Below are positions 11,129 through 52,500 of a DNA stretch of 64,000 nt, piece by piece. Source of the DNA: Porpolomopsis calyptriformis (taxonomy: Eukaryota > Basidiomycota > Agaricomycetes > Agaricales > Hygrophoraceae). A program made the position numbers and the translations under genes. Location: contig OX621163.1 of NCBI GenBank assembly GCA_951640195.1, positions 3,410,001-3,474,000 of the forward strand. The letters are read 5' to 3'. The notes under the pieces are model-generated. The model worked only from the letters and a program-made list of their open reading frames with translations, had not been told where the DNA came from and ran no database searches. Position 1 is the first letter of the stretch, and each line of letters starts with the position of its first letter.

Positions 11129-12868
11129 ATGTCTCTCTCTACAAAAAGACCTATTCCTTTCATAGACATTCCCTCCAAAAGGCAAAAGTTATCTATCCTG
11201 CCAGAGGAAGAAGAGGAAGAAGAGCACTCTTCTCCTACACCCCCTTCCCCCACACCCTCTCTATACATCCCTCCCAAAGAAAATCACTCTTCTCATCAAA
11301 ACAGGCCCACGCCCACACCCACGCCCACGCCCATGCCCATACTCAACTTGCCCTCTACGCTCCCCCAGCTTACCTTAGCAAATGACATCTTCTCTTCCTC
11401 CACCACCTCCTGCACTCACCATACCTCCCCACCAGATCCCAACAGCCTAGACTATCGCGGATGCGCCGCCCTCACTCACTTCGGCATGTACTTCTACACC
11501 CCCCTCCACATCCTCTTTTGCGAAAGGTGTTCATCCTTCATCCCCTTTGATACCCTCCGCACCCACCTCAACCATAGAAAGCATGCGCCTTCACTTCCTA
11601 GAACCCAAAAGCACCTCTCCCAACTTATCATAAATCATCTCCGGAAAGCTTTCTCCCTAAATCTATCCCAGTCTGCCCTCACTTTCAATCGCATCTTCCA
11701 ACTCACCCTTCCTGTCCCCGGTCTCAAACCTCAGCCTGCTCACCAATGCAGAGGCTGCCCCAGCTGGTCCTATGACCCTCCCCATGGTTCCCGAAAGGGC
11801 CCCCTCAGCAACCTCCGACATCATGAGAAATACCCATGCAAGTCCCCAAAACCCTCTCGCCAGTTGGAGGACTATAGGTTTGCCTACATCGTCGATATGT
11901 TCTTGGCCTGCTCCGGCCAATTCCAGAGGAGAGTGAGGGCCTCATTTTATTCCCCCCCGCCAACGCCATCACCTCAACCGCCAATCCCTACCCCCGTCAT
12001 CACCGTCTGGTCCAATTTCCCCTCCTACCTTGATCCACTCGGTTGGCCAACCTTCCTCAACAATATCCGCATGACGCCAGCCACTATCGCTGGCTTGGTC
12101 AAGCCTCCAAGCTCCCAGCTTGGCAGCAAGCTTGAAGACAGCTTGAGGCTAGTGAGACAGCTCTGCACAGTCTATCTTGAGTCAGCAGATAGATATCTCA
12201 GCACGCTGCAACCTGCAGTGCGATCCGCCATCACTGGAAGGTTAGCAAACCTACCCCCTTCCCCTTCTTTTTTTCTTCTTTCCCAACAAAATCAATTTTT
12301 TAGTGAAGAGAGCAAGTCCAGATATCGCCATCTCTCTCCAGCAGCCTATAAGAGATACGGTCTTGCCATGATGAGATCTATCGCTCTCACATTGAGGTAT
12401 CGGCTTTGGTGGTTGCGAGACAGAAGAAACCCTCAGCCGAGGCTGGCCAACTTTGCTTTGGACGTCACCCCTGAGCAGACTCAAGCTACTGAAATCCTCT
12501 GGAAGGCCTGCCTGTCTCCCACCGATGCTGAGGGGATGGCAAAGGCTATCCACACCTTTGCTGGATCCCTTCTCCGCGCGATCACTCCTTCCACCAACCA
12601 AATCGGCACCATCCCAGATATAGCCCTTATTTTCTCCTTCGTTAAGCCTGATGGATCCATCGCAGATCCGCGCTCCATGACTAGCACCTTAGCCATGTTT
12701 CAGTACATGTTCCGATCCGTCGTCATCCATAGCATGCGACTAGGTGGCCCTCATCAACCCTTTGTCTTCTTCGATACCCCCTCTGAGCCAGATTCACATC
12801 TAGACATTTTTGAAGATGAGGAGGATGAGCAGGAGGATGAGCAGGAGCAGGAGCCCGAGCCCGAGCCC

Positions 12869-12912
<44 letters not shown>

Positions 12913-14675
12913 AGAACAGGAAAGAGAGGCAGCCAGTGATAACGATCTCCTCCTCCTTGATGATCTCCCTCCTATGAATCTTGTCAGTGTGGATGCAGCT
13001 GGTGAATGCAAAGAGCCATTGATGTAAGCACAGCTAGCAAGTCTGACAGCCCTGAACCTAACTTAAACCACCCCCCCCCCCCCCTAGGCTGCTCAAGAAT
13101 GACATGGAATGGCTACAGCCCAGGCTAGATGTTGCAAACTTGTCCCTAGGCGTAACCTCATTTCAGCGTCTCAAAGCAACCTGGAAGATCCTGTTCAAGC
13201 CAGGGCAAGAGGTTGAAAGCAAGTCAATGGTTGTTTGGATGGGGAGCGATAACAAAACCTTAACCTTCTTCTCTGGAGGTTCTAATCCCAAGTCTGCCAA
13301 GATTGCGCTGTCAGATTTTGCTTCTGCCGTAAAGAGCCTAATAGACTCACTAGAGAACCTCTTGGCATCTATGCTCCAAAAGCTAGAGGCCGACGTCAAC
13401 TTAACTTCCTTCCCCCTAGATGCTATCGTCGATAATCCTCTTCTCCAAACCTCCATCTTTGCACAAAACCCGACCATCTTTTTCAACCTGCCACCTCCTG
13501 CGCCTACTTTTAGCTCAAAGCAATCTTCATCCTGGCTTAAAAATGATCAGCGAATCCTTGAGCTGATCGCCACCCTCATATACCTCACCTGCGGCATCCC
13601 TCCGAGAGCTTTTCAGGCTGTCAACCTTCGCTTCAGTGGGACCTCCCTGGAGACCCGAAATCTGCTTCACCTTAATGGTCACCCAGTCATTGCCTGGCCA
13701 AAGAGGAAGCAAGGTTGTCAGATGCGACAGGCCAGCCTCTGGATGCTTCCCAAACAGCTCGCCACCCCCATCTACCTCTACCTCACACTCATCCGACCAG
13801 CCTCGATCCAAGTAATAAACAGTCTCAGCTACACACCTCTCCGAGCTCTGCAGACGCACCTCTTCGCATCCGTGAATGCTTCCCACAGACGAGATCAACC
13901 TACCTGGTCCCCCGCTCACCTCATCCAAGTCCTCCTTGGAGAAACAAAAGCGCACTTCAACTTCGCCCTCTCCCCCAACTTCCTGCGGCAAATCATGACG
14001 GCCGTATACAACAAGCACTTTCCCGACCTCATCCAATCCTTCAACCCAAACTTGAGCCCCCAATGCGAGGATTCAGTCCACACCTCAGCTGCCAATGTCG
14101 CCGCGGGACATACCAACGCCACCGCGCGCTGCAACTATGGCAGGACTGATCTGGCCGCCACCTGCCATCTCTCTGATAGCAGCATCACTCTGTTCTTTCA
14201 AGTCAGCCAAGCGTGGCAGATGATGCTGGGCTTTCCATCTGGAGGCCATCCCTTTGTCGGAGGAAACTTTTCCATCAACCTGGAATCCCAGTTGATTGCT
14301 CTGAACCGTGCCCGCACTCTGATTTGCAGTTTGTACCAACTGGGAGGGTTGCAACCAAGCATAGCCCTTGCTGCCAAAGTGAAGGCCATCTTGAATGGAC
14401 ACAGGTTTTTATCTTGTCAGAAGGTGCGCGCCTCTTTTAAAACTTAACAAAGTCTCTCTCTCTCAATTGGTCTTTGGCTAAAATATTAGGATGCAAATGG
14501 AAGAATAACCCAAATTGGAGATGACGCACTGGTTGGTGTTGCTGCAGCTCTTACCTACGGTGAAAACCCTCCCTCAGACCTAGCAGCATGCTCAGCAGAT
14601 AGTGGTTGGCTGGTGGCGATGGTTGAGGAGGCAGCATTCATAGTGAGAGCATATCCACCTATCGCCACACTCTAA
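11129..14675 (+). CDS. Zinc-finger protein with tyrosine-recombinase-like C-terminus
   Basis: Exons 11129-13023, 13088-14423 and 14490-14675 join in frame into about 1,138 residues. A further 63-bp intron at 12241-12303 (pyrimidine-rich, TTTTTTAG end) is likely and frame-neutral. Order: basic, acidic, Pro/Thr-rich head; a Cys2-His2-like finger near residues 131-150 (FCERC..THLNHRKH, resembling OrsD/BED-type fingers); a second CxxC..H..C cluster near 207-240; an acidic EQEQ repeat near 570-600; then a domain with Arg in GIPPRAF (about 803), a Lys-rich strand, and HTSAA..GHTNATARCNYG (about 962-981). The spaced R..K..H..H..Y order fits a tyrosine recombinase, as in Cryptons and in the N-terminal part of basidiomycete subtelomeric RecQ proteins. 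It is intact. Fold assignment is by motif only. Confidence 0.6.
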
Positions 14676-14976: not shown

Positions 14977-15492
14977 TATAGGTAGACAGGCAGGCACAGA
15001 TGCCATATGAGCTCCAAAGACAACCAGCCTCTGAACCCCTGAGCCCTGAGACTGAGACTTACGTCCCCTCCTCATGCATGCACACTGTACCCCCCTCTTC
15101 CTATCCCAATCATCCATACAGCTGGTAGCTTTTCACTTTCCAATCTTCAATAGATCCTATAATACTGAGGGAGGATGGCTTCCTCAGTTGCGCATAGCAT
15201 GGTGCTGGCTGTTCCGGTTCTTCAGGGGGAGTTAGTTGGCAGCAGTGATACATTCTAGATGGTCTGGCTTGCTTGCCTATCTTGGTGATTTCTTGATGGA
15301 TATTGATATCAACAAAGTGCGCTCATCTCCTAATCAATTCCATTTGGAGGGAAGCTATAAGGGTATTGGTGTATTGGGCGCAGAGAGCTGTAATCGAATC
15401 GCTCAATTTGATCGAATTTGGTTGAATTTGGCTACTTAATTTGCAGTGTGACTAAGCATTTTGGATTCTGATATCATGTGATTTCTGATCTT
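14977..15492. other. Intergenic, possible decayed 5' exons
   Basis: An ATG frame at about 15175-15260 (MASSVAHSMVLAVPVLQGEL) is followed by a frame at 15236-15439. They could be 5' exons of the dioxygenase gene, but I cannot join them convincingly. Confidence 0.3.
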
Positions 15493-16993
15493 ATGGACAA
15501 GATGCAGGAAGTTGATATAGAGCAATTGATGCAAATCAAGCTCTCTCAGCTATTAGGTTCTCTCACCAGTTTCTATGATGCCTGCCCTCCTCCTATAAAC
15601 CCAAAGGTTGAACGTCTCAGACTAAGGTAAGAAAGAGAGGATCCAAGTACTGTAATCTTCTTATCTGCGCTGCACTAGGCAGAAGCTATTGCATCAGGAA
15701 CAGGCGTTGAATAGAGACAAGACATTTGATGCTAGCAGTCATGATAAAATTGCTAACCTAGTTGCTCAGGCATTGCTTAATCCTTGTAAGTTTTTCTCTC
15801 TCTCTCTTCCAAACGAAAAAAAGTGTAACTGAGTGAAACCAACCTAAGATGTTGTCAACTGGGATGCTAGCCGGTGGGCTGAGAAAGTGAAGATGGGAGT
15901 TGTACCAGGTGATACAGACCAAATGACGATGGACCGAAATCTTCCTAAATACTACCTGCAAGAAGACATCGGTAACGAAGACACTCCGGCCCTGGTCAAA
16001 GACCACCACGGCTGCATCCTTCTTTAGTATCTGCCTAATGTTCTTGATAGCCAGCTTAAGGTACGCATCATTTAATTCTCTCCATCTCTCTTCATGCATG
16101 GGTTGAATTTTAAGCAGGGGCAGATAAATCAGGCAGTTAAGGCCATCTCCCCTTTGCTGAGGATGTCGTTTGAGAAAGAACGCACAGATGATAATTTAGA
16201 ATTATCATCAAAGAAGCCTTCTTGGCGGCGGTCATGCTTTCACGAGCCACACTACAATGCCGAATTTCAAACTGGAGTGGTGGACATCTCCCCAGAGTGG
16301 TTTGCTTTGAGTCACAAGGTAGGTTACTTTTCATGGGGAACTTTTCAATAAAACAAACAAAGGGGTGACTATATTTTCCAGACTTTAGCTTTCAACCCCA
16401 TTCCATCCACTACCATAACTGACCGCCGCGTCCCCAAGTTCTTGGCCAAGTTAAAACCTCTTCACGATTCGCTTGAAGCAATCCTCAGTATCACAGCCCC
16501 CCAATTAAAGCACGCAGGCCAAATGGCAATAAAGAAAATCAAGGAGAACAGAAAACATGAGCACGTTGCTGCCTGGACATCATCATACTTGGCGATGGCG
16601 ATTATTGTCAATTGGGAAACACCTCGACACTGAGATTCTAGGGGTGGCCCAACTCATTTTGATGCCTTGGTCTCGGCTGGAACACACACGGGTGCCTATT
16701 TTGACATCCCAGATATTGGATTGAAACTAAAGTATGATCCGGGAACTGTGGTCATTCTTGCTGGCTGACTATTGTCCCATCGTGTCTTGTCATGGGAGAA
16801 GGGGGAGCGGATATGCTTAGCCCATTATATGAGGGATAATGTGCATGAGCGATATCAAGTTAGGCGCCCAGGTTGGCCACTTTTCTCGGACTATGAAGAT
16901 ATGATGAGTGTGAGCTATCGGATGAGGCAGCAGGTAGGCGCGGTTGCAGAGAACCAGCAAGTGAATGTGAGGAAGCGAAAAAGGGGGGGATAG
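15493..16993 (+). pseudogene. TET/JBP-like 2-oxoglutarate dioxygenase, three nonsense codons
   Basis: At least six exons can be followed from MDKMQEVDIEQL (introns end near 15678, 15848, 16117 and 16381). The C-terminal part shows the basidiomycete TET/JBP pattern: AIIVN.ETP, H-x-D, then YFDIPDIGLKL.Y.PGTVV, SHRV with the distal His (16778-16780), and GERICLAHYMRDNVHER with the 2-oxoglutarate-binding Arg. Known: these enzymes oxidise 5-methylcytosine in DNA and in fungi are often linked to KDZ transposons. Three in-frame stops interrupt it: TAG 16025-16027, TGA 16631-16633 and TGA 16766-16768, each one C-to-T change from CAG or CGA. The second lies between the catalytic His and Asp. A Trp where the family usually has Arg just before (TGG for CGG) fits the same change. 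It probably makes no enzyme. Confidence 0.75.
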
Positions 16994-17605
16994 ATGGGAG
17001 TATTATTTTGGACACCAGGCAAGAGTGATAATGCATTTTGCTGGGTAAGCGCTGTGCTTTTAGGCTGTGTCAATTTAGGCTGTGTCAATTGCACTTACCT
17101 GCGGTCAGTCACAGGAAGATTTCCTTTTCTCTTGTTCTATTCTTGGAATGAACAGTATATACAGTTAATTCTGTATCTGTGCTGTCGTGTAATTTAAGTT
17201 ATTCACCCCAATGCTACCTAATTCTCCCAGCCTCCAGTATCAGTCTCATTTCAAGCCCTTTTGGCAGACATTAATAACTATCAACCACTCGCACTGCTCT
17301 GGTTTTGCTTAATCTCTAGCTGCTGTAACTTTTGAGTGGCAGTGGAATTGTTTAGCTACTTTATATTGCGAGGGTGCGCTGGTTGTTGAAACACCTGGAA
17401 GGATATTACACAATTCAGCACTAGATGCAAGGGCATATCATACAATTCAGTACTAGTACTAGATACAAAGAAGATGCAAGAAATGTTCCTCTATAAATCT
17501 AGAAAAAAAGGTTGAAAAACAAAGAAAGTATCGGAACAACATACAATATGCAGACCTAGTCCACAAGCACCTATCCCCGTCTTCCCCAAATTCCAAATCC
17601 TGCCG
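16994..17605. other. Spacer between convergent genes
   Basis: 3' ends of the dioxygenase relic and the H3-mimic gene face each other here. It contains short direct repeats (GGCTGTGTCAATT twice near 17060; CAATTCAG.ACTAG twice near 17410-17460). No gene seen. Confidence 0.5.
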
Positions 17606-19391
17606 CTACCTAGGCTGGCCTGGCACCACCCTATCCTCTTTCGGGTGGTGGTTGATGAATGCTAGTTGCTGGAGTGGGAGGAGGACCAGCGGCCCATAAA
17701 ATACGCGTGGGTGGGAGGGGCCGACAGGAACTACGAAATTAAAATCCTCTGCTGCTGCCCAGTGTGATTGCCATCCACATCTAGAGCATCGCAGATGCAG
17801 CCGCAACTCAGACTTCTTCGTCACTACTACAACATCGCGGGGTATAGGATTGCAGGTGGGGGTCCCACACCATGGAAATGTCAGTCCAAATGCCCTGACC
17901 CCAGGGACTGTTACTCCCATTGAGAAACATTCATCTTTTGTAAGAATTGCAATCGATGTGTGCTTGAGAAGGGTGAGATCACCCGCAAAAGAGCGTTTCA
18001 GGGCTTGCTTGATGTCCCGAGTTTGATCCACAAAGATTTCTTGCACGAAGTGGACTAGAGGGAGACTGACCAAACTGGGGATCATGCTACAGCCTGAGAA
18101 CCCCAGAACGACATCAAAAACACCGCTACAACAAAAACAAAAAAAGAAAGAAAAAAAAAAAAAAGTTAGATTTTTTCTAGCATGTGCAAATGGAAATACA
18201 GGCACTAACCCCACAACAAGCTCCTTGATGAGGTCCAAGTGACATTGTACAGTGATTGCAGGTCCACAAGTGAGAAGAATGAGGGCTTTGTAGCCGACCC
18301 TGCTTGACTTAAGGAACGAGACCAGGTTTTCACCAAGGAAAGAGGATAGTATCTGCAAGGCAAGGTAGCGAATGGCTATGCAAAACCAGAATGGTAGAGG
18401 CGGTACGTACCTCGGTGATAGGAGCAATTCTCACCCCCGTTGCAGCATGTTGCAAAAATCCAGTGGAAACATCAGAATGGGTGTCAATCGTTACCAGGCA
18501 GTTTCCTGGAATGTTAGAGGCTTCAAGAAAGGAAATAACTTGAGGGGAAGTCTTCTTAGGAGTGGCAGACTTGGCCCTCATGTATATACGCTGCGCGAGA
18601 AGCTAAGAAATAAAAGAAAACCAGTCAGATTTAAGCCCTTTAAATTAAACAAAATATTGGTGGGAAACACATTACATTGTATGGTGAGTTGTGGAACTCA
18701 TCTCGCATCATGGTTTCCAGAACTGAAGAAAACGGGGACTTGGTAGAACCGACTAGTTCAAGGGAGATGAGAGCCAGGGGGACAAGCGTTTTGGTGTAGC
18801 ATTGATTGCTGTAGCTCATAACAGTATACTGGAATTAGGAAGCTCATGCATTAGCAAGGTCCTATTTTTATTTTTATGAGACAGAGGAAAGAAATACCTT
18901 CATTGGCTCATGGAGCCTCTCCGTGCATGCGGGACAAGTGAAACGCTTCCCTGCCACAGTGGACTCGAGGATACAGCCTGTCTGCCTGTGGTCCTTTGCC
19001 AAGCAAATCATACGGCCACAGTCTTCGCACAACTTGAAGCGCACAGCAAAATCGCGGCACATGGTGCAATATTGTTTCTTGAAAGAAAAAGTTAGTGTTC
19101 TCTGAGATTTCTCTGCAACTTAGATCTCACCTCGTGATCCCCAAATATGGGGGCAGCAGTCGCAGTCTGGGGGACTTCTTCATTCTCGTGGCTTTCGCCC
19201 TCCAGGTCATCGTTATCCGATTGCATTGGTATATCCTCGTTGGTAATAACCGGAGCAATTTGACCTACTACACTTCGGCCCAGGAATTGGCGCTTCATAT
19301 CTTGTGGCCTAGAACTTGCCAATGCTTGCAGTTGTTTCTTTCGGCTAGCACCTCCAACAGACTTTTTAGCAGTTTGTTTCATGCGCGTCAT
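17606..19391 (-). CDS. Histone H3 tail mimic with zinc finger and CHAT/caspase-like domain
   Basis: Six exons on the minus strand (19131-19391, 18898-19077, 18676-18828, 18411-18602, 18210-18352, 17606-18125) join in frame into 482 residues. It starts MTRMKQTAKKSVGGASRKKQ. After Met removal this lines up with histone H3 without gaps: R2, K4, Q5, T6, A7, K9, S10, G12, G13, K18, Q19 and L20 are identical. An acidic linker follows, then a Cys/His-rich finger at about 90-140 (YCTMC..LCEDC..ICLAKDH..FTCPAC), then a region with VTIDTHSD (His240) and LILLTCGP (Cys291) followed by VVLGFSGCSMIPSLVS, like the His/Cys dyad and following strand of CHAT/caspase-fold proteases. A CSRCGW pair lies near the end. 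Intact. The H3 likeness is seen directly; the protease fold is inferred. Its start is under 200 bp from that of the divergent 19569 gene. Confidence 0.8.
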
Positions 19392-19568
19392 TGTTTCTTG
19401 CCTAGTGCTTTCCTTTCAGTGAGTTGAGTGAGCAAAGGAAAGGAGATTGCTCACGGTGCAAGCGATGGTTGGTGGATATGGGTAAGTTATTTGACCTTAT
19501 TTGTCAGATACAACAAACTCTTTGTGCAAGGTCGCGTTTGACATTTTCCATCACGTGGTCCAACTACG
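19392..19568. promoter_or_regulatory. Shared divergent promoter region
   Basis: The 177 bp between the start of the H3-mimic gene (minus) and the first good ATG of the next gene (plus). It must hold both promoters unless upstream exons exist. No clear TATA box. Confidence 0.4.
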
Positions 19569-20865
19569 ATGCCTATCACGCAATTTGTTTTACGCTGGCC
19601 CACAAGTCTACCCACATCTGGAGAATTAAGTGATGCAATGAAGTGCTGGGAGGATGTGGGGGAAGTTCAATTGGTGGCTCAGGGACGGGAAGGCCTACCG
19701 GCGGAGGTCTACCACACCACTCAATGGAATACGATCACTAGGGTTCAGGACTCCGATAGAGGCGTGATACTGCCTCTTCAGTACAAGAAGCACTGGGAGC
19801 AACTAATCTACTCAAAGATTTATCACTCCCAAGTCTATCAGTGGCTGAGCAAATGGCAGGCTGAGAAAGGGAGTAGGCATCGACTGGTCCATCAAGCCCT
19901 CGAAACCCACTCAAAATACGTCCTTTACCTCACCAACGTTATGAATACGATCAAAGAATTCTTGCCCCATTTATCTTCCCTAGATTCAGAGGCTCGTATT
20001 CCAGTCTTTGACGAGTGGATCCTCTGGGACTTTTGGGAATTACATGAGACAACCTACCCTGAAATTGAATCACGGCTCAATAAGGGTAGATTTAGCCTGG
20101 ATCCATTCAAGGATGCTGATAAACTAGGTGGGCAGGTTTGATCTGCTGTTTTTTTTGTTATTTTTTCTTCGAAATTTCATTTGTTTTTTCTATTCAGTTT
20201 CAAATGAAATCTTCCTTGAAGCGAAGTGCCCCAACTCCAAAGATCTGTCACGTTGTGTAAGAGAGGGGATAAAGCACTTCGACTTTCAACGACACATGGA
20301 AAAAATGTTACATGCTTGTGGAATAATCAGGAAACCACGCCGAGCTAAGGGGAAGGGAGGGGGGGTGGATAGAGGAAAGGGGAAGGCAAAGGAGGTGGTG
20401 GTGGGGGATAATGAGGATGCAGATGGGGTAGGAAAGCACCCAGGGAGGGTAGAACCAGGCCAGCTTCAGCAGGTCAACCCTGAGAAGAGACCAGGACTTA
20501 AACGCAAACGCACAGGGCTCAATGCAGACACTTTGCAAGATCCTGTCACCCCACCTCCAGTGAAGCTCCTCACTAGCTTCGCACCAAAATCCTTGCAGCT
20601 CAAACAACCATCTGAGGATGTGGAAAGGAAGAAGAAGAAACACTCTAGGACGACGAGACTACCCCCTGTTGAATGCGTCCCAAGTTCAACATCTGTCTTA
20701 GTTGGGCATGGCTGCAGTAGCATGGCTGAGGATGATCCTAATCCTCTTCCTTCCTTGCAGAACAGTAAACGAGAAGTGGTGCAGGAGAAGGATGAAAATA
20801 ACAGAGATGCTGAACCAGGTATTGAATCTGAATCATTGAATTTAGCCCATCTCATTGACGATTAG
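19569..20865 (+). CDS. Basic, lysine-rich protein of unknown function
   Basis: Exon 1 runs from ATG 19569 to 20127 and exon 2 from 20198 to the stop at 20865. The intron uses GTGGGC..TATTCAG and restores the frame DKL/VSNEIFLEAKCPNS. About 408 residues. The first half is rich in Trp and Tyr and looks globular (HWEQLIYSKIYHSQVYQWLSK). The second half is disordered and basic (PRRAKGKG, RPGLKRKRTG, RKKKKHSR), which would suit a nuclear DNA-binding or nucleolar protein. No family recognised. It is divergently paired with the H3-mimic gene, so the two may be co-expressed. The exact start is uncertain because a further 5' exon is possible. Confidence 0.55.
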
Positions 20866-21480
20866 ATAGCCTAATAGAGTTCCAAGAGGGTGGGTACTAC
20901 AAATTCAGAGCATTTCTGAACACACTGGCCTTGTGTTAACACTGTCGCAGTTCTTCCTGAGGTGGTCTGGCATTCTTTGATGGGCGACGATCCTCGAACC
21001 AAGATTTTAAAGAGAGTGAAAGAGGAAATATAAAAATAAGGCAATGGTTTTTTTATCTAGGATGTGAGTTCATTCAAGTTGTTTTCAAGATTGAAAATCA
21101 CCCTACCCATCTCTAAAGGTAATAAACAGTGCAGTGAAATAATGGTGTAATGGTGTAACAAATGGTAACATCATGTAAAACAAAACGTAACATCATTGTA
21201 TCAGTTGTAACGTGAAATGTGATGGCACAATATGTGTAGTTAAGTGCGTATTTATTTATTTATTTAAGAGAGGGTAGCAACACACAACATGATGCAACAT
21301 TTCAGTATCAAAAATCTATTTGTTAGTTAATATATATATATAAAAATCAGATTTTCTGCCAGTGTGGAAAAAAGCTCAGGCAACTGAGAACTGAGAAAAG
21401 AAATTTTTCAGAGTGGAAATTTCTAAACACAAGAAAGATAATTGCCTGCTTACACAAAAATAAAAGAGTAGGTTGAAAAG
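20866..21480. other. Intergenic, nothing recognised
   Basis: AT-rich, with several TGTAAC/GTAACA words (21140-21220) and a TA run. No gene. Confidence 0.5.
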
Positions 21481-21920
21481 CCCACAACTCTTTCCACACA
21501 ACTTTGCATTGTGCTGTTCCCGCCCTGCATTTATAGCAGGAGGTGGAAAGAGGAGAATTAGTGACCATGAACCTTTGCGAGTTCACCGGTCCTCTGCAAG
21601 CAGAGGTGGTCAACAAACATCCAATCCCCGGTTTTTCACTCTCCACGCAACTTTGCGATTGCGCTCTATCCTCCTGCAAAGGCAGGAGGTGGAAAGAGGT
21701 AGTTAATAACCATGAACCTTTGCGAGTTCACTGGTCCTCTGCAAGCAGAGGTGGTCAAGGGCCAACAAACATCTATCTGGGGTTTTGCCCTTTTCTCCAT
21801 GCAACTTCGCAATTGCACTCTGTCCTCCTGCATAAGCAGGAGGTGGAAAGAGATGGACTTTAATGACCATGAACCTTTGCGAGTTCACCCGTCCCCTGCA
21901 AGCAGGGGTGGTCAAAGATG
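21480..21920 (+). repeat. Tandem repeat, three units of about 146-157 bp with small hairpins
   Basis: ACCATGAACCTTTGCGAGTT recurs at 21563, 21709 and 21866. Each unit has two short palindromes, CCTCTGCAAGCAGAGG and TCCTCCTGC..GCAGGAGG. In the third unit the first becomes CCCCTGCAAGCAGGGG, with both arms changed so that pairing is kept. Open frames crossing it are repeat translations. Confidence 0.85.
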
Positions 21921-22044
21921 ATGATGATGGGTGTTAAGGGGAAAGGATGGAAAAATCAATTGCGCAAAATTTCAACTATATATACATAATCATAAGGTCA
22001 CGTGACAATTCAAACCATCACGTGTTTCTAAAATAGCTAAATTT

Positions 22045-22366: not shown

Positions 22367-25300
22367 CTACTGGCGTTTTACCCGTTTACGATTGAGGGGC
22401 AACTCTTCTGCAATTCCAGTTGGATAACAAATTAGAACAGGAATTAAAGCAGAAAAAAAGCAGACACATACCCATGCTATCACTCCGGGGTCGGATGCGG
22501 CTATCCAGGTTGGGTATAAAGCAAGAACCATCGCTTTCGCTGTCATCGCGCAATGCCTCACTAAGCGTCTCATGCTCCGGCGGGGGTGCCAAGTCAGGAA
22601 TCATGACTCGCTCAGGGGGGTAGTCATTGAGGACTGGGATTATTTCCATTCCCGGATGACTGTTTCGAGGGAAGATTGTGAAGCTTGGGCCAGTCCATTT
22701 GAAAGATGTCCTGGGAGCCTTCTCAAGATCCTGGAACCGAGGTAGGAGCTCGGGCCAATGGTTTGACAGGTGGATTCGGAGTGCTTTCTTCAGCTGCTTG
22801 ACAGTGCACACGCCTGATTCCTGCGGCCTTGCCTCCTTGTATCCAGAGATGGCAGAAGCAAGATCTACAAGTGACCTTCGAAAGACATACATCGGGGATA
22901 CGCAGAGATAATCGAAGAACACAACATGCGCGTCAGAAAACCACTTCATGAAATGGTGGTATTTCCATCTGGCAATGTTGTATTCTTCCTTCGCCTCTTG
23001 TGACAGCATGCGGAGGTAAAAAGGACGGCTGATGATTTCAGCAAGTTCAACCAGGTTCCCGACAGCAATCAGATCTAGAAGACCATCCTGCGTCGTAATA
23101 TCTGGGGTATGACTACGTTTCATAGCTGTGGCTAATATAGTCGTTAGCTGAGAGGCTGTATTACTAGCTTAAAAGACAACTTGCCGTTACTGTTTCCCTC
23201 AGAAGCGAAGTGGTTGATCCAGGCTGTTGGCATCCTTCGAAGGAAAGTTCGGGTCTCATCGTGCTCCGTGTTTGTGATTGTGAGACTCATGATAAACGCG
23301 TGGATTATCCCACAGCAGCTGTCGGCAATGGTTGAAGTAGAATAAAAATGTGAGCCATAGGTAATAGCGTGGTCGGTTCCCCAGACGGCGTGTAATGTAT
23401 TTGGACGCATGTATCTAGACACATCAGGAAACCCAATTCAGAAATTCAGAGGAAGAAGTGATTGGGAATACTTACAGCACAGAATTCTCATGAAGGAAGA
23501 TCCCTTCTGCTTCAAAAATCCCTTCTCCAGGGCATTCATGCGACCAATCTGAAGGGAAACCCAAGGAGCTGGTGAGATCGCCAACCAAGTCACCCTCTTT
23601 GCGGTTCCTGCGTGGACTGAACAGAACCCAATACTTTCCCCCACACATCACATGTGCCGCAGTTGCAAATCCATCATCATCTATATGGCACCAAGTCGAT
23701 GTCCCTTTTGTCGCAGCAAGACCCCACTTCAACGCATCTGTGATTGGGCGCTCGTTGGCCAAGAAACCTTCTAAATCACGAGTTTCCTTCCATGACCATT
23801 CGTGAGAGGCCAGTTTTCTGCAATTGAAAATCGAATGGCGTTTACACTGCTACAGATAAAAAACAATTTTGTTGAGATGACTTACCCAAAACCAGGGTGG
23901 GGTTGGCGAGTTATTTCACCCATGGGGAAGTGAAGGGCATTAATAATTCTGCGAGCCCCAGGATCTGCTGCTGCCTGGTAGATCTGCTCCAAGTTTCCTG
24001 CCTGAAGAAGGCTCATTTTACCCTCTTGACCCCTCAACTCAGCCACTAGTAAAATTGTAAATTGTGGGCCGCAATATCACTAATTGAATCGTTGATATGC
24101 ACCTTGCACTGAGCGCAGCGTAGTCAGAGACCCCAATGTCTCAAGCCCTTCCCTGTCAAATTGGATCCGCTCTTGTGGAACATTCAGGATGAGAATATGG
24201 CGTTCACGAAAGATTCCCTGCACTTGCTCCCCCGAGAGTGACAGAAAATCTCCATACTCCACCACAAATATCCGGGAGGCTTGTGGATCATATGTGATGC
24301 TTCGAGCAGAGGGAAGAAGATGGGGCGGAAGGTGATTAACATATCCATTTTCTACAATACCTTGGACGCCCTTCAAAAAGCGGATTTCTTTTTCAGCCTA
24401 CAAAACAAAGGTCAGAATTTGGCAAGCTGGGTTGAAAAGGTTGCGAGCATCAAGGAAGGACGGTCTCACCACAGCACAGGGCGGCGAATATTCAAAGGTG
24501 TGTGGTCCTTTGGAAGAATCACCTCCGTAAATGAGTATTTTGACCCCTTCCTCAACAATCTGTACAGTAAATGAAATGCCGCATTTAATTTTGAATCATG
24601 GAAGGATGAAAAAATAAATACAAACCTGAGGCAGAGGCAAGGTATTCATGTTCGCGCAGTCTGGTTGCTGAAAGGAGGAAAGGGAATGTTAGATTGTGAA
24701 AATATCGCTAAGGTTTTTTTGCACACTTACTTGTCCTGTCAATGTTCTAACTGGCTTCAACAAGGTCTTTACCATCTTTCCAACCACAGGCGTCCTCCGA
24801 TTCAGAACAGGTAGTTCAACGGGAGAAGATTCTTTTTGTTTCCTCCTGCCGTTGTGATCATGAGCTGATTTGTGGGTTAATATCACTGATGGTCGGGATA
24901 CTGGTTGGATGGGGGGAGGCGACGCTCTCCTGGACCCTGCCTTCCTCTTCCTTTGTGGTGAGGGAGGAAGGGAATTCACTGGCGCAGCTTGGGCAGGACT
25001 GTGAGGTGTAGCAGGGTAATCCTTAGAGGAAGGGAGGGCTCGCGTCCCCTTGCCTAGGAACTGTCGGATGTGGGCCTGTTCCCCCTCAGATGACTCTTCA
25101 GAAGTTTCATCTGTTGATTCCCGTTCAGAATCCTCTCCTGAGTCAGATTTAAGATCCTCGTCTGACTTGGATTTGGAAACCTCTTCATCCTCGCTGGAAG
25201 GCTCTGTTAGTTCCGATCCCTGAGATGGAGATGGCAGGAAAAGTGGGGTGCGGCCTGAGGACATGTTCTCCAACAAATCATCACTTCTGTTGTTAGGAAA

Positions 25301-27554
25301 GTCCTCCGCAGTAAACAGCCCTAGAGATACTTTCGCAAGCCAAATAAGATGATAGGTAGATTTATCCAGAGACATTGACTTACTTGGGTCCTCATATAGG
25401 TCCACCGTGCTGATATTGTTATCCACCAGACCACCGTCTATCAAGAGTGTTTGGTGGTAGTCACCTACGGCATCTACAACGGCAGCCTCCATTTGCTGGG
25501 TGGGTGAGTCTGCTTCACTCTTCTGACCCATCAACGCGAGTTGTTTCATTTCACTCTCAAGTGCCCCTCCTGTGGATCTTGATTTCCCAACTTCCTCTTT
25601 GTTGGGCTGCTCTAGAGAAGCTTTTTCACCAGGTAAATAAGGTGATTGGTGGGATTCATAAGAGAAATATTGACTTACTCGCAGTCTGGGTTACATCTTC
25701 CATAATAACATCCCTGTCTTCCAGAGCCCCTGCCGTCGAGGCTGTGGGATAGTCATCTGCTGCATCCGACCTAGCAGCAGCCCCAATTCTAAGCCCACTT
25801 TCAGGAAGTGCGATGTGAAAGAGGGCGGGCGATGCTTGAGTGACAGCTAAAAGCGCTGCCTCTATCGTTCCCATGGGAAGAAGACTGTTATCGTCATTTG
25901 AGGCAGATAGTTCTGCACTCGCAGATTGGGGTAGGTCTTCTGCGGCAGGTTGCGGGGCTTCAAGGGCCGGTTGGGGCAGGTCTTCTGCGGCAGGTTGCGG
26001 GGCTTCAAGGGCCGGTTGGGGAGGGCCTTCGATAGCCAGTCGGAGGGGGGGTTCAACAGAGAGTTGACTTGGTCTTGCAGGTATTTGGAACCAGTTTAGT
26101 TGAAGGTCGTTTTCGGAGGGTTGAGCTTTGGCAAAAATTGTTTGGGCTTCATTAAGGAATTGCGTGATTTCAATGAGAGCAGTTGACCCCATGATAATCC
26201 GCATCAATGCTCGCCAGAGGGCCCTTTCTGTAGCAACCAGGACAGGCGGTCGCTCATTTCCAAGGGCAAGATTAACCTTAAAAGAATATAAATGAATGAA
26301 TGGAGGGTGCATGAAAGTTTTCTAATAACGGATGACTTACTGCCACTAGCTGGTCTCGCCGAACACCTCCTTTTGCGAATTTCATAGGAAGGAGAAGCAA
26401 TAGGGGGGTTATGGAAGTGGTGAGATGAAAAAGATCTCTCATCCGCTCAAAAGTTCCTCGTGGTCCTTCAGAAAGACGTTTCTTGAATTCAGGACAAAGG
26501 GGTAAATCGAGGGCTAAAGTTGTGCTGTTTCAATTTGAGTGATTTAGAAAGAAACATGAGAGCAGAGGGTTTTTCTGCACCTTTCCAAATCTTTGATCCA
26601 TCTGCTAGTATATGTGTCATCGGCAGCATGCTGGTTGATGTAAATAATGAATAATGCATAATGCAGTTCCTTAATAGTTGAGAAACTTACTTTAGTGAAC
26701 CAACTGATGGCGAAGGCTGCGAGCTCCATATTTGTAAGAATCTCATTTGCCTCAGCAGACTTTAAGTGATGGATTGCACGATGCAGGGCATTGACACCTC
26801 CAATGAGATGCTGATGCGCTTCACCTACGCCTGAAGCAAGTCCCACTGCAAATGCGCCTTGCTGTGAACTTGGGGCATTGGTTTGTTGCAGTTCGGATAA
26901 AACCCTACTCGCTTTAATTAGGGGGTTGGTCCATGAGTCGAGTTTTGCAAGAATCTAAAAGCCAGATAAGATATATCAGCTTAAGAAAGATTGGCCTAAA
27001 TTGAAAAACAGACTTACGTTCATCAATCTCTCTGAAATGTCTGGCATTTCAAATCTCGGCTGGACTTGAAATTTTGGATGGCGTGTGCCACAAACGGCAT
27101 CCACTAACTGATCAAGCAGACTATGACGGAGAAGGGTATGGCATGCCACCATCATATCCTTTGAAGAAACAGTCGCCCATTGGGGTAGATTTCGGAGAGC
27201 TGAACTGTTAGCCCTGAAATATTTGAGCAGGACAATCTGTTGTCGAACATCAAGGGCTGTAATGGTAGCGTTGTCAAGTTCTTTGGAAAGTAACTGGAAG
27301 GCGTCTAAATTAGTTCCATTATTAAGAAACGGTATGGGACTTACTGAAATAACCTCCCTCGACCTTGGATCATCATCCAATTCTTCTGAGAACCTCTGGG
27401 TGACTTCTGTAAGCAAAGAACCTTCAGAGAGTGTAACTCCATTAAGCCATGGAAAGCTCTTGAAAGCTGCGTATCGGCATAATCTAGAATGATGTAGAAA
27501 TGGGATATTAGAGGAGGAGGATGAGGGGGTAGGCTGCTGAGTAGTGTGAGCCAT
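22367..27554 (-). CDS. Large JmjC-domain protein
   Basis: A minus-strand gene of ten or more exons, from MAHTTQQPTPSS (27554; an alternative ATG is at 27590) to the stop at 22367-22369. The N-terminal third is helical with no recognised domain. The middle is acidic and Ser-rich (25060-25260) and contains a duplicated 18-residue Pro/Ala unit (25925-26010). The C-terminal third is JmjC-like: STWCHIDDDG gives the iron-binding HxD (about 23670-23690), followed by AAHVMCGGKYWVLFSP, GIFLHENSVLYMRPNTLHAVWG with the third His (about 23380-23395), and a basic tail (LNRKRVKRQ). Known: JmjC proteins are Fe(II)/2-oxoglutarate dioxygenases, often demethylating histone lysines. The triad is complete and no break is visible, so it is probably active. 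Substrate unknown. Divergent from the Ulp1-like gene. Confidence 0.75.
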
Positions 27555-27617
27555 TGAGTGTAGGAATGATGACACGAGGAATGACAACACAAGGGTTAGT
27601 CGTTAAAGTCTGATGCG

Positions 27618-34932: not shown

Positions 34933-37900
34933 TCAAGAAAGAGAGGGATAATTATCCATGCTCTTATTTCTTGACCTGGGGGTTGGAGATGGTGGTGGAC
35001 TAGCGCAGTAATCGTCTGATGATCCCTTTGGGTATTCAGGGGATGAATTCAGTCCCCAATGTGGCGTAACGTTTTGCTGCTTTGAATGGTTTTGTTCTAG
35101 GTTAATAGCATTGAAGATGCGCTGACGATCTCTTTCTCGTCGAGCTATCTCTCGAGCCATCCCTTGATCCATCACAGCCTGCCCTTGCTCCTGCTGAGCA
35201 CTATCTTGGAATCCTTTGATAGCCTTCTCAATTATACTCAAAGTACGACGATGGATGTTATCATATTCCAACAAGCGAAATCGATAGGCGAGGGCGAGGA
35301 CGTTCCACCATTCAACGAGCATCGGCACCAAGGTCTTAAAGTATGGGTGGAAGTGGGGTACGATGTGTGACACAAACTCATCAGGGTGGGTGAGAATCCG
35401 GAGTTTATTGCGCCTCAGCATGTCCTCGCTGCCGTCAAAGAGGCAATGGACCACTGTGTGCAAGGCTAGGATGTCATCTCCTAGCTTGTCGTCTGCGGGA
35501 GGTTCCAGCTCTTTCCGGCGTACAGCTCCGGGAGACTGGCATGTTAAGCAAAAGTAAACGATGACCCAGAAGAAGGACTCTATGTCATGAATAGCATCAT
35601 GAACATATTTTGGCTGAAAATGATTGTTGAAATATGAGGGAGTGACCTCGCAAGCCAAGACTTCATAGCTCATGAATGGGAGGGTGCCCTTGGTCCCAAA
35701 CTTAGTAAGGCAGAGCAGGCAGGAATGGAATAAGACTTTGAGCATACCGATCGAAAACCTCTCCGAGCATTGTGGTCCTCAAAGGTAGGTCATGTTTCCT
35801 GCTGAAAAATGGGAAGAACAAGTAAGCATGTTTAGAACACACCAACACCATAATCTCACCAAGTACTCCCAGCCAATATCGCCGAGGTGACAAGGGTGGT
35901 CCTGCGAGAATTGGTGTGAGCCAGTGGGCCTGATGGATGTGGCTTCCAAGATGTAAGATGCCGCATAGTCAACGCGGAGGTATTTCAAAGCCAACAGGGC
36001 CACATCATCGTCAATATATATCGGAGAATCTCCTTGCTCAACTACAGCCTTGACAAGCCCCACCTGGCTGTTGTTGTGTTGAGGGGGGGGGTTTACTTGT
36101 TTAAATTGATGGGAACTCTTTGCATGATCAAGGTCAATCAGACATCCCTTGGTCTTCTGAACATCCTTATCGTCTGGGCATATGAGGATGTTGCCTGGAC
36201 TGATGTCGCGATGGAGAACACCTTTTTTGAATAACTGCCGATGACCTGGAGATAAATTTTCAATCCGCCAAGTCAAACAAGGTTGTTGAACAAACCATCT
36301 ATACAATCGCGTATAATCTTGAGAAGTTCTAGGTGGTCCTTAAAGAATTTGATGGGCCACCCCCATGTTTCTAGTAAAAGTCGATAGTGGGAACGCGAGA
36401 TTGGGATGAGAGCTTCAGGGCCCACAGAAAAGAAATCAACATCCGCAGATGTCGTGATGTGGAGGAAGGCCTCCAAATTCTCATCGCGTGTCCGTTTGGA
36501 TGGGGCTGACAAGGAGCGATTCTCTGTGCTCAGGGATGATGTATATTGCAGCCCACAGTGTATGAATTGGAAGGTGGCATCCAGTGTCCCATGGATTGAG
36601 ACATCTTCAGATGAGTAGATCTGCCCAATGTTTGCGGAGCCGCCAACAGGGACTTTGCGATAAAACTTGGCCTCCGGTGGAAATTCACCCCCACTAAGGG
36701 GGGTATCATGGTTTGTGTGGCTATATGGACGCCAAGTCTGTTTCAACACATAGACCTTTGTCCAGGGGAAGAATTAAGCCAGATCTGATTTCCAGAAAGA
36801 CAACCTAGCCTGACCTTTCGTGGATGTGGAAGGTCACTGAATTTGATGACCTCCCAAACAACTGTCGCTCTGCTGCACATAACTTCTGCAGTCACAACAC
36901 TGAGGGCTCGTAGAGTGATAAACATTTCCCTAGATGAACCATCCTTAGAAGGCATCTCAATCGCCCAGTGGGTATTGTAAATTGAGGTATCGTAGTCTTT
37001 GACACAGAATAAACGGGCATAAGATGGTACGAAAGAGGGGTCCATTTTCGGAAGGTATAGTTTCATTGTCGGATCCCAACCCAGCCGATGAGGTTCCATC
37101 AGAGAAAAGCTGGCAATGACACGGATGAAGCTTTTGGGATCCTTACATGATGAATAAGTACAAGACATACACATTATCGCATTAAATAGCACAGTACAAG
37201 CATACCTTGTGGATGTTAATGGGAACGTCGGTTCCAAAAACCCCAGATCTGTCACACAACCAGATGGAGAGGCGGTCAAGACAGAACACCAGACCAATGA
37301 CGTATCATCTATCAACTTGTTCACGGAGAACTTGTTGCATGTGCCCAGTCAATTGCTTCACTGCGTCCAACCAGTCTTTCGGTGACCGCGATCGTTTAAC
37401 CTCAACTGGGACGTGAATTTGAAGCCACCATACCTCCATCAGCTTGGCCTAGTCGAGGAGCTGAGAAATCAAGAAGCACGAGGGTGAACATATATGAGGA
37501 CGAACCAATGCGATGTTTTGCTGCTCCTTTGTTGCGGCTACCGCACATCCCTCTCCTGGTTGTGATTGGTTCGCTGCTATTTCTTGGTCAAAGGCACAGA
37601 GCGCCCGATCCCTGGACACGTAAACTATATCTGGACGGATAGCTGCTGCATCGGAATCTCGGGACCGGGGCGTGATGGCGTGCCTGTCCAGCCAGAGGCC
37701 CTCGATGGGGGCATCAACCACTGGAGTGGTGGTGGGTAACTCGAACTCCTTACAAGCATTACTGATGGCGTTTGCGACATCCGTGAAGGGCATGTAGAGC
37801 TTGTTTTCTAGCTCTTGGTCTGTTATCGGAAACCCTGTCCATCGCTTCTGGGCAGTATCATAAACTGGCATGGGGTAGTGTGTCAACTTGGCATATATCC

Positions 37901-49596: not shown

Positions 49597-52500
49597 GTGG
49601 CCCGCATGGAATTAAACAGCCTTGTAGCTGTTGTAATGTTCAATACAGGCAGCACCTCTGATGCCATTAGCCCAGAATTTGCGAGAGTTGCAAATTTGAA
49701 AATATATCAGTTGAAGGACCCTGTTCTGATCCAACTAGGATGCCACGGTAGCAGATCGCGGATTAACTACAGTACTTACTGTCCCATGCGGTATGAAAGT
49801 ATTGCAAAGAAATACTACTTCGATATTGTAAATATCGACAGATTCGATGCTATAATTGGCATCAGGTTCATGCATGAATTTGAAATTATGCTAGAGCCTA
49901 GCACGAACCAGATAATGGTCTGCAGGGTAGCTACTCCTGCTCTAACTGAAGGGGAGGAAAATGATGAAATCATGCGCAGACAATCGCTGTGATGAACTGA
50001 ACAAAGGTCTGCTGAATGACTAGCAGACGCAGAACTGAAAGGTTCTACAGGGAAGACGTCTGGACAGGATGTCATAGAAACCGACAAACCAAAAGAGTTT
50101 GTTGAGGAGTTTTCAAGAAAAAGGTGTTCAGATGTGAACACAAAGAAAATAAAAGAGAGTACCCCTACTGGGTCTAATGAAAAGATGCTACTAAGTGTAG
50201 CTCAAATTGTTCAACTGAATGAAAGGACTGAAACATCCCTAACACACGAGGACAGACCTTGCCTTCAAGCCAAATGGATCGAAGTGTGCCAAGATATTAT
50301 GCACAGAGTACCTGAGGAATTACCTCCAGTATGTGGTGTCAATTACCACATACCTCTTATCAACGAAGATAAGAAGTACAATTACTACCTTCTGAGATGT
50401 CTGGACTTGCTAAAGCCTCAGCTTATGGTGAAGATCGCATGGTATATGTGTGCTGGATGGTGGGAATCAGTGCAAACCGATCAAGCAGCTCTGATGCTGT
50501 GCATTCCAAAGAAGAATGGCACTCTACAGATGCCAATTGATTGTCATAAATGCAACAACAATACTTTGAAGGATGTTATGCCCTTTCCTGACCAAGACCA
50601 GATCAGATATGATGTGGCCGGCAGAACAATAAGGTCAAAAATCAACTTATCAGATGCTTATGAGCAGGTACGGACAGTACCTGAAGATGTGCATAAAAGT
50701 GCATTTGCAACTATATATGGCACCTATGTGAGCCATACAATGCAGATAGGAGACTGCAATGCACCCGCTACATTCCAGTGGGTAATGACAATGATCTTTC
50801 AAGATTTTATCAGCATATTCATGCATGCCTATCTTGACGATCTATTCGTCTATAGTGCTTCTGTCTCGGAGCATGAAAAACACTTGGGTCTCATGTTTGG
50901 TAAACTATGAGAATACAAGTTCTACCTCCAAGAGGAGAAGTGCGAACTGTACGCCAATGTTATTGACTGTCTAGGTCATAAGATAGATGACAAAGGGCTA
51001 CACACAGATGCCGATAAAATGGTAAGAATATGCGATTGGCGACAACCGCGCAATTACAATGATGTCCAGAAATTTATAGGACTTATACAATATCTGGTGC
51101 ATTTCCTGCCAGATATCTCAAGTTATACAGGGCCATTAGCAGCCATGATGGCACACAGGCAACTGTTCACATGGAGACCAATCCACAATAAATGCTTTGA
51201 AATGATAAAGCAGATATACTGCTTGACACCTATACTAGTGCTGATACATCACAAGAAAGATGAACCTATATGGGTCATCTGTGACACCTCAATACATGGC
51301 GTTGGCGCAATGTATGGACAAGGTCCTACCTGGAAAACCTGCAGACCAGCAGGATTTATGTCGCGAAAGTTTACGGATGCTCAATGGAATTATCGTACGT
51401 TCAAGCACAAAATGATCACGATACTCAAAGCTCTCCTTAAATAGGAGGACAAACTGATAGGATATTGGGTTCACGTTGTGACCGACCATCAAGCTCTTGA
51501 GTTCTTCAAGACGCAAAGATGCCTGTCTAGCCGATAAGCTCATTGGATGGAATACCTGTCAAGATTTGACTTTGACATAACATACATCAAAGGGCAACTG
51601 AATAAAGTTGCCAATGCATTATCACGTTATTATGAAAGTGATACATGGTATGATGCTCATCCTATGAGTGAATACGTAGACATAGATATACGTCTAGACC
51701 CAGAAAAGGATGATCTCCCTTGGGATCATCTAAACAAAATTAATACTGGAGCCATTGAAATGAAGGCTATCCAGGTCATCAAAGACATTCAATGACACCA
51801 AAGCAATTGTCTCCTCAAAAGAGAAGAAGATAGAGATGCGCAAGTGGCAGTGCTTGTGCTAGTTCCGATTCTAGAAATGGAACCAATGAAAAAATTAAGA
51901 TCATCCCCAGACGATCCAACGATATTCCAATCCCATAAATGGGGAGAGAACTTGCACACTCACATAGAGCGTGATGAATCACTGACAGTAGCAATTCACA
52001 GAGGATACATATCCAATGCATTATTCAGCAAGGTTCTCAAAAACCCTGATCACTATAAGGCCTGATTTGGTCCAAGAATTTGGGGGGAGAGGAAGTACTA
52101 TGTATCCAATCTGCAAAGATGGGACAAGAATCAATTTTCGGCCTGATCATTGATCAAGCACACTCAATAGTGGGCCATTTTGGTCCACAATGTACCGCCG
52201 ACTACGTAAGACGATGGTACTGGTGGCCAAAGATATTTAGCCATGTTAAACAATTCTGCAAGTTATATCAGACTTGTCAAACATCAAAAGACGATATGCA
52301 GCGCCCAACAGGACTGTTGCATTCATTACCCATACCCATGAAACCGTGGCAATCAATCAGAATTAACTTTATTGGTCCATTTCCCAAAATCGATGGGTAC
52401 AATTACCTATGGGTAGTCATTTGTTAAATGACATCAATGATCCACCTAATTCTGGTGAATACCAAAATGAAAGCATCAGAGCTTTCGTGGATCTACTTAA

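What the first reader, a model, noticed from the sequence alone, without database searches (positions are those of the whole stretch)
17606..19391. Protein beginning with a near copy of the histone H3 N-terminal tail
The first 20 residues after Met match H3 without gaps at R2, K4, Q5, T6, A7, K9, S10, G12, G13, K18, Q19 and L20. It is attached not to a histone fold but to a zinc finger and a His/Cys-dyad CHAT/caspase-like domain. Inferred: it could be modified by, or could titrate, H3K4/K9 writers and readers, or be a substrate that switches the protease-like domain. The neighbouring JmjC gene makes a self-contained mark-and-erase pair conceivable.
Basis: partly seen in the sequence, partly recalled or inferred. 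Interest (0 to 1): 0.92.

Follow-up and report, generated by a model that had tools for sequence, protein, structure and literature searches.

The report
Histone-tail look-alike beside demethylase-like gene
A repeated gene in a mushroom-type fungus makes a protein whose first 20 residues resemble the tail of histone H3, and it sits beside a TET-like DNA-oxidising gene, so it may help a selfish DNA element escape silencing, although the resemblance could still be chance.

Summary
A six-exon minus-strand gene (17606-19391, 482 aa) begins MTRMKQTAKKSVGGASRKKQL; 12 of the first 20 residues after Met equal H3 in register. The start is well placed: eight codons separate it from an in-frame stop upstream. 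No histone fold was found. A Cys-rich finger follows, then a domain with a conserved His240/Cys291 pair. The caspase/CHAT label is unproven: Pfam, PDB profile, hhalign and a partial AlphaFold model gave no support.

The gene lies in a repeated block (three copies, 79-87% identical DNA; dN/dS 0.26-0.28 against the window) beside a Tet_JBP gene. A divergent relative (about 30% identity; shared intron positions, dyad and finger cysteines; no H3-like start in the four loci read) has at least 42 copies, 36 of them also near Tet_JBP. Most copies are near-identical duplicates.

Best reading: an anti-silencing partner of TET whose tail is a decoy for proteins that bind or modify H3 K4/K9. Against it: the tail is known only from this genome, Arg2 is lost in two of three copies, the tail shows no extra constraint, and chance or a nuclear-localisation tail is not excluded.

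The parts
19131..19391 (-). Exon 1 (residues 1-87): ATG at 19391, H3-like tail (residues 2-21 = H3 1-20), then an acidic, probably disordered linker
   Evidence: splice model; 12 of 20 match; alignment of three copies; in-frame stop with eight codons between it and the ATG
19329..19388 (-). The H3(1-20)-like codons, TRMKQTAKKSVGGASRKKQL
18898..19077 (-). Exon 2 (residues 88-147): Cys-rich finger, C91 C94 C104 C107 C112 C122 C135 C138, PHD/RING-like spacing (my reading)
   Evidence: cysteines largely shared with the divergent relative; no Pfam match over cut-off
18676..18828 (-). Exon 3 (residues 148-198)
18411..18602 (-). Exon 4 (residues 199-262) with candidate catalytic His240 (codon 18479-18477) after a hydrophobic stretch (CLVTIDTHSD)
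18210..18352 (-). Exon 5 (residues 263-310) with candidate catalytic Cys291 (codon 18268-18266) after a hydrophobic stretch (ALILLTCGP)
17606..18125 (-). Exon 6 (residues 310-482 and stop): rest of the hydrolase-like domain and a C-terminal cluster C396, C401, C423, C426 (17869-17777), probable zinc ribbon
   Evidence: four cysteines invariant in the 12 sequences of A4
15447..17173 (+). Tet_JBP region, degenerate copy (two TGA in the frame of the PF12851 match, 16352-16990); whole gene not modelled
   Evidence: aligned to the C4 and C11 copies at 86-87%
19569..20862 (+). Orphan gene, head to head with the H3-like gene (177 bp between start codons), basic second half, no Pfam match
22389..27602 (-). 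JmjC-like gene in pieces (weak PF02373), same order and orientation at C4
15447..21006 (.). Repeated block TET(+) / H3-like gene(-) / orphan(+), copies at C4:192106-197581 and C11:289369-295045

Best explanation
The gene is an accessory gene of a repeated, TET/JBP-bearing element (mobile or once mobile) in a basidiomycete-type fungus. Its protein probably works in the nucleus as an anti-silencing partner of the TET/JBP oxygenase. The oxygenase acts on methylated DNA. The H3-like tail, whose Met should be removed because Thr follows (general knowledge), acts as a decoy or pseudosubstrate for host proteins that bind or modify H3 at R2/K4/K9/S10, such as the H3K9 methyltransferase and its readers. 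The finger and the His/Cys domain process or sequester what the tail captures. Shown: gene structure, H3 match, sharing of the His/Cys pair and cysteines with a divergent relative, repeated-block location, linkage to Tet_JBP, and past purifying selection on the whole protein. Inferred: nuclear site, decoy action, hydrolase activity, anti-silencing.
For: 12 of 20 identical to H3 in exact N-terminal register, 0 of 400,000 shuffles; 14 of 25 to an own H3 gene. Start codon fixed by an in-frame stop just upstream and an A at -3. Positions identical to H3 are unchanged in 11 of 12 across three copies, non-identical ones in 4 of 8 (one-sided Fisher P 0.058). dN/dS 0.275 (window-C4) and 0.256 (window-C11). 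Tet_JBP lies beside 3 of 3 copies. The divergent relative is also linked to Tet_JBP: in all, 39 of the 46 listed Tet_JBP hits have a CHAT-like gene within 5 kb, and 39 of the 45 listed CHAT-like genes (3 of 3 here, 36 of 42 of the relative) have Tet_JBP within 5 kb. TET/JBP genes in fungal DNA transposons are thought to counter methylation-based silencing (PMC12730594; abstract and sections 3.2 and 4.2 read).
Against: No homologue outside this genome was seen to carry the tail: the exon-1 search gave 15 candidates, none at E <= 1, and the N-termini of the 58-59% identical exon-6 relatives (P0004, P0008, P0009) were out of reach. The divergent relative shows no H3-like motif in the four loci read (L029-L032 of at least 42 copies), though its exact N-terminus was not modelled. 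Arg2 is Cys in C4 and His in C11. The C4 frame is open upstream of the ATG, so the H3-like start is not certain there. The tail shows no extra constraint: dN/dS 0.89 and 0.60 on 27 codons, with very few changes. The pairing counts come mostly from near-identical duplicates (about two independent cases, my judgement), and only 7 of the 46 Tet_JBP hits exceed the Pfam cut-off. Hydrolase fold not confirmed. No KDZ or Plavaka transposase hit lies in the window or in the C4/C11 stretches read. The window's TET frame carries two stops.
Confidence: 0.35

Rival explanations
1. The resemblance to H3 is chance or convergence on a basic, disordered N-terminus that serves as a nuclear-localisation signal. 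The protein acts with TET/JBP through its finger and His/Cys domain; the tail has no chromatin mimicry.
For: No H3-like motif in the four loci read of the divergent TET-linked relative; tail not specially constrained; identity past residue 20 is slight (2 of residues 21-25 with an own H3) and the intron that interrupts the own H3 tail is absent from exon 1; DNA identity to the own H3 coding sequence is only 39 of 69 bases; a whole-H3 HMMER search does not list the gene; an unknown number of windows and motifs was read before this one was reported.
Against: P per start 2.8e-10 to 1.8e-7 and 0 of 400,000 shuffles; exact register from residue 2; chromatin-related neighbours.
Confidence: 0.36
2. 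Autoinhibition in cis: the tail occupies the protein's own PHD-like finger and keeps the His/Cys domain closed; nucleosomal H3 in a given modification state displaces it and switches the enzyme on, so it senses chromatin state at the element.
For: The finger is shared with the divergent relative, whose finger gives a non-significant match to the CHD4 PHD finger (E 1.3, second row). Self-inhibition and histone-like automethylated segments are known in H3K9 methyltransferases (PMC9768651, passages seen).
Against: Finger type not assigned; no model of tail plus finger was made.
Confidence: 0.14
3. A domesticated or decaying repeat gene with no present function; the intact window copy simply has not decayed yet.
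For: C11 copy has a premature stop and a deletion; window TET frame has two TGA; C4-C11 dN/dS is 0.5.
Against: The window gene is open over 482 codons with splice sites intact, and dN/dS between window and C4/C11 is 0.26-0.28 at dS 0.41-0.46.
Confidence: 0.1
4. A fungal allorecognition or cell-death protease with a histone-like regulatory tail, unrelated to transposon silencing.
For: His/Cys order and hydrophobic context resemble clan CD (His at the end of strand 3, Cys at the end of strand 4: PMC4357240, passages seen).
Against: Genomic linkage is with Tet_JBP; Pfam CHAT finds one other locus in this genome, not this gene; no NLR or death-fold partner was noticed, but none was searched for.
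Confidence: 0.05

Closest known systems
Histone mimics (G9a/GLP H3-like automethylation segments, PMC9768651 passages; influenza NS1 C-terminus, recalled)
   Same: A short segment of a non-histone protein that resembles an H3 tail stretch around a modifiable Lys
   Different: Here the resemblance runs over 20 residues in register at the very N-terminus; the protein carries a finger plus a His/Cys domain; no modification or binding has been shown
TET/JBP-bearing fungal DNA transposons (Kyakuja/KDZ, Plavaka and others; PMC12730594)
   Same: A Tet_JBP gene linked to a repeated element; three of the four other Tet_JBP hits over the Pfam cut-off in this genome lie about 2.1 kb from a KDZ transposase
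   Different: The window, C4 and C11 TET copies have no KDZ or Plavaka hit nearby and lie beside the H3-like gene; the 2025 paper's main text does not contain the words caspase, CHAT, zinc finger, PHD or JmjC
Transposon-encoded anti-silencing factors such as VANC of Arabidopsis VANDAL (PMC10398659, PMC5735166; search listing with start of abstract only)
   Same: An element-borne protein proposed to counter host epigenetic silencing
   Different: VANC is described as sequence-specific; here the proposed mechanism is histone mimicry with TET, untested
Clan CD cysteine peptidases (caspase, CHAT, separase)
   Same: His then Cys, each after a hydrophobic stretch, 51 residues apart, shared by two divergent subfamilies
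   Different: No Pfam CHAT/C14 match, no PDB or hhalign support; extra finger and C-terminal Cys cluster

Membership tests
Histone H3 | H3 N-terminal tail sequence | tested here: met
   12 of 20 identical in register; a partial match only
Histone H3 | Histone fold after the tail | tested here: not met
   No histone family listed by Pfam for the 482 aa at E <= 10; the genome's own H3 genes are elsewhere
Histone mimic (functional class) | Recognition by an H3 writer, eraser or reader | not testable with these tools
   Needs peptide binding or mass spectrometry
Histone mimic (functional class) | Mimic segment conserved among homologues | tested here: inconclusive
   KQTAKKSVGG and KKQLQAL kept in 3 of 3 copies in this genome, Arg2 in 1 of 3; no such motif in the 4 loci read of the divergent relative; no outside exon 1 found
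CHAT / clan CD cysteine peptidase | His and Cys at the ends of adjacent strands, in this order | tested here: inconclusive
   H240 and C291 shared with the divergent relative after hydrophobic stretches; strand placement not modelled with confidence
CHAT / clan CD cysteine peptidase | Match to the CHAT (PF12770) or another clan CD family profile | tested here: not met
   None listed by Pfam at E <= 10; the PF12770 search of the genome lists only C5:1480419
CHAT / clan CD cysteine peptidase | Caspase-haemoglobinase fold | tested here: inconclusive
PHD/ADD finger | Cys/His pattern and profile match | tested here: inconclusive
   Eight cysteines with PHD-like spacing; no Pfam match over cut-off; the relative's finger matches the CHD4 PHD finger only at E 1.3
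TET+ DNA transposon | Linked Tet_JBP gene | tested here: met
   PF12851 E 1.3e-14; beside 3 of 3 copies
TET+ DNA transposon | Linked transposase and defined termini | tested here: inconclusive
   No KDZ or Plavaka hit in the window or the C4/C11 stretches, but other transposase families were not searched genome-wide; no exact 12-base inverted match between 15251-15700 and 20901-22000; the 14-base left end of the C4/C11 duplication was not found inverted in the C4, C11 or window sequence held

The most novel reading that the evidence does not exclude
A selfish fungal element carries a two-part anti-silencing kit: TET/JBP to oxidise methylated DNA, and a baited protease whose H3(1-20)-like tail attracts H3K4/K9 writers or readers (or DNA methyltransferase recruiters) so that the linked His/Cys domain cleaves or disables them.
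Probability: 0.1. Interest if true: 0.92.

Novelty: new variant of a known kind. Interest (0 to 1): 0.6.

Why it matters
If the tail is a true mimic, it would be a repeat-element-encoded likeness of the H3 tail in register at a protein's N-terminus, joined to a finger and a possible hydrolase and linked to TET. That would make histone mimicry a weapon in the conflict between transposons and silencing in fungi, with simple peptide tests. Whatever the tail does, the linkage of Tet_JBP with this uncharacterised His/Cys family in two divergent versions points to a partner for transposon TET enzymes that I did not find in print (searches; the 2014 TET/JBP-KDZ paper is not held).

Tried and rejected
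JmjC partnership as the main story: same gene order at C4, but its pieces are 27-55% identical (43% in the longest), against 72-79% for exon pieces of the H3-like gene, 69-90% for the Tet_JBP region and 66-76% for the orphan. So it is not a tightly co-inherited pair.

Capture of the tail from an H3 gene: exon-1 DNA is 39 of 69 identical to the own H3 coding DNA, and the intron that interrupts the own H3 tail is absent from exon 1. Neither capture nor convergence can be shown.

Upstream exon or other start: in the window, eight codons separate an in-frame stop from the ATG; in C11 a stop stands just before Glu-Thr-Met; C4 is open upstream, so a longer start is possible there. I saw no further coding ATG in the 177 bp between the divergent start codons, by eye only.

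Fold: profile against PDB gave two unrelated weak rows; finger searches gave weak rows only; hhalign to a canonical CHAT fragment of this genome (L055) gave probability 0.15%. AlphaFold of exons 5-6 was of low confidence in the Cys strand. Foldseek and VIA-align gave HslV/proteasome rows at chance-like levels; no caspase or CHAT row was among the 50 shown by either.

Viral contigs: 57 stretches matched a pattern, none a relative. Papers on histone mimicry, CHAT or caspase in fungi, and TET elements: nothing on this protein in the listings. The 2014 paper on TET/JBP and KDZ elements (recalled) is not held, so prior mention there is not excluded. Passages of PMC7473861 (Agaricus bisporus genomes) were seen and not used.

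Full report
What is there. The window is part of a 33.5 Mb, 17-contig genome. Genes with short introns and the Tet_JBP, KDZ and Plavaka families suggest a basidiomycete-type fungus; the species was not identified. On the minus strand, 19391 to 17606 encodes 482 residues in six exons with five GT-AG introns. The protein starts MTRMKQTAKKSVGGASRKKQLQAL. The next in-frame Met is codon 4. The first ATG has A at -3, and eight codons separate it from an in-frame stop upstream.

Chance. No shuffle in 400,000, for each of three shuffled lengths, reached 12 of 20. Analytic P per protein start is 2.8e-10 to 1.8e-7, so 3e-6 to 2e-3 expected per genome of an assumed 12,000 proteins. If very many genomes and motifs were scanned to find this, chance is not excluded. 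A plain H3 search of the genome does not list the gene: the signal lies in the N-terminal register. The tail of one of this fungus's own H3 genes gives 14 of 25.

Copies. The block 15447-21006 recurs at C4:192106-197581 and C11:289369-295045 with 79-87% DNA identity. C4 and C11 are 94-96% identical to each other, apart from insertions, over a 28 kb stretch (C4 188259-216567, C11 285520-314616). Their tails read MTCVKQTAKKSVGGTGQKKQLQAL and MTHVKQTAKKSVGGAGRKKQLQAL: 11 of 20 to H3 each. Arg2 is changed in both (CGC to TGC and CAC), as CpG transitions would do. Positions identical to H3 are invariant in 11 of 12, the others in 4 of 8 (P 0.058). Whole-gene dN/dS is 0.275 and 0.256 against the window, and 0.50 between C4 and C11; C11 has a premature stop and a deletion. 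The 27-codon tail alone shows 2 synonymous and 6 nonsynonymous changes (C4), 2 and 4 (C11): no sign of extra constraint, but little power.

Domains. Exon 2 holds eight cysteines with PHD- or RING-like spacing. Exons 4 and 5 hold His240 and Cys291, 51 residues apart, each after a hydrophobic stretch. The C-terminal part holds C396, C401, C423 and C426. A divergent relative in the same genome (L030, 30% identity in A3) shares finger cysteines and the His and Cys-Gly. On my hand-made splice model it also shares intron positions 3, 4 and 5 with their phases. Clan CD peptidases place His and Cys at the ends of strands 3 and 4 (PMC4357240, passages seen), so the pattern fits. But Pfam, the CHAT profile in this genome, PDB, hhalign and a partial AlphaFold model give no support. 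The hydrolase reading is therefore an inference.

Neighbours. At 16352-16990 (+) lies a Tet_JBP domain (PF12851 E 1.3e-14, X at two TGA), also present at C4 and C11. The HRD motif is intact in C11 and has a TGA at that Arg in the window and C4. At 19569-20862 (+) an orphan gene runs head to head with the H3-like gene. At 27602-22389 (-) lies a weak JmjC-like gene, in the same order at C4 but 27-55% identical by piece. The divergent relative is present as at least 42 exon-6 copies (the list was cut). Of these, 32 of 42 lie within 350 kb of a contig start or known contig end, 2 do not, and 8 could not be placed because the contig length was not seen. Some stand in tandem arrays. A Tet_JBP-like gene lies 3.1-3.3 kb from 36 of the 42. 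In total 39 of 46 listed Tet_JBP hits have a CHAT-like gene within 5 kb, and 39 of 45 listed CHAT-like genes have Tet_JBP within 5 kb. Only 7 of the 46 Tet_JBP hits exceed the Pfam cut-off, and the copies are not independent. Three of the four other Tet_JBP hits over the cut-off sit about 2.1 kb from a KDZ transposase; the three beside the H3-like gene do not. No KDZ or Plavaka hit lies in the window or in the C4 and C11 stretches read.

Relatives elsewhere. The full-length search found one protein, P0001 (E 3.9e-19). The exon-1 profile found none of 15 candidates at E <= 1. The exon-6 profile found 10 at E <= 1, three of them 58-59% identical. Their N-termini were out of reach, so conservation of the tail outside this genome is unknown.

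Interpretation. TET/JBP genes in fungal transposons are thought to remove silencing marks (PMC12730594; abstract and sections 3.2 and 4.2 read); a word search of that paper found no such partner. I take the H3-like protein to be an accessory anti-silencing factor whose tail acts as an H3 decoy. Chance or a nuclear-localisation tail is about as likely. The boldest reading, a baited protease, is compatible with the data and directly testable.

Noticed in passing
L030 (C2:3655000-3663000) and the 42 listed loci: Near-identical copies of a divergent CHAT-like gene with a PHD/ADD-like finger, many near contig ends (32 of 42 within 350 kb), some in tandem arrays of 49,281 bp (C16, 4 copies) and 29,310 bp (C5, 6 copies) spacing; 36 of 42 have a Tet_JBP-like gene 3.1-3.3 kb away
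   Followed up: partly
C4:188259-216567 and C11:285520-314616: A 28 kb stretch duplicated at 94-96% identity that contains the TET region, the H3-like gene, the orphan and JmjC-like pieces; local palindromic sequence at its ends but no clear terminal repeats
   Followed up: partly
C3:1397089, C2:2264366, C14:427831: Tet_JBP genes about 2.1 kb from a KDZ transposase, so this genome holds both transposase-linked and CHAT-like-linked TET genes
   Followed up: partly
L028 about 2233-2334 (C12:1220776-1220833): A 58-base stretch, 84% identical to exon 6 of the H3-like gene, sits among repeated frames of another sequence
   Followed up: no
window 57491-61525: Helitron-type pieces on the minus strand (Helitron_like_N, PIF1, sub-threshold UvrD_C_2)
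   Followed up: no
window 34936-37324 and 50134-50907: Fungal protein kinase pieces (PF17667) in adjacent frames on the minus strand; a reverse transcriptase (PF00078) on the plus strand
   Followed up: no
window 19131-19391 versus C4 and C11: CpG-type transitions (CGC to TGC or CAC; CGA to TGA in the TET copies) are seen between copies, as expected of methylated repeats; not quantified
   Followed up: no
window 11129-13024: Large ORF with a sub-threshold OrsD-like match (PF12013, E 6.9e-05)
   Followed up: no
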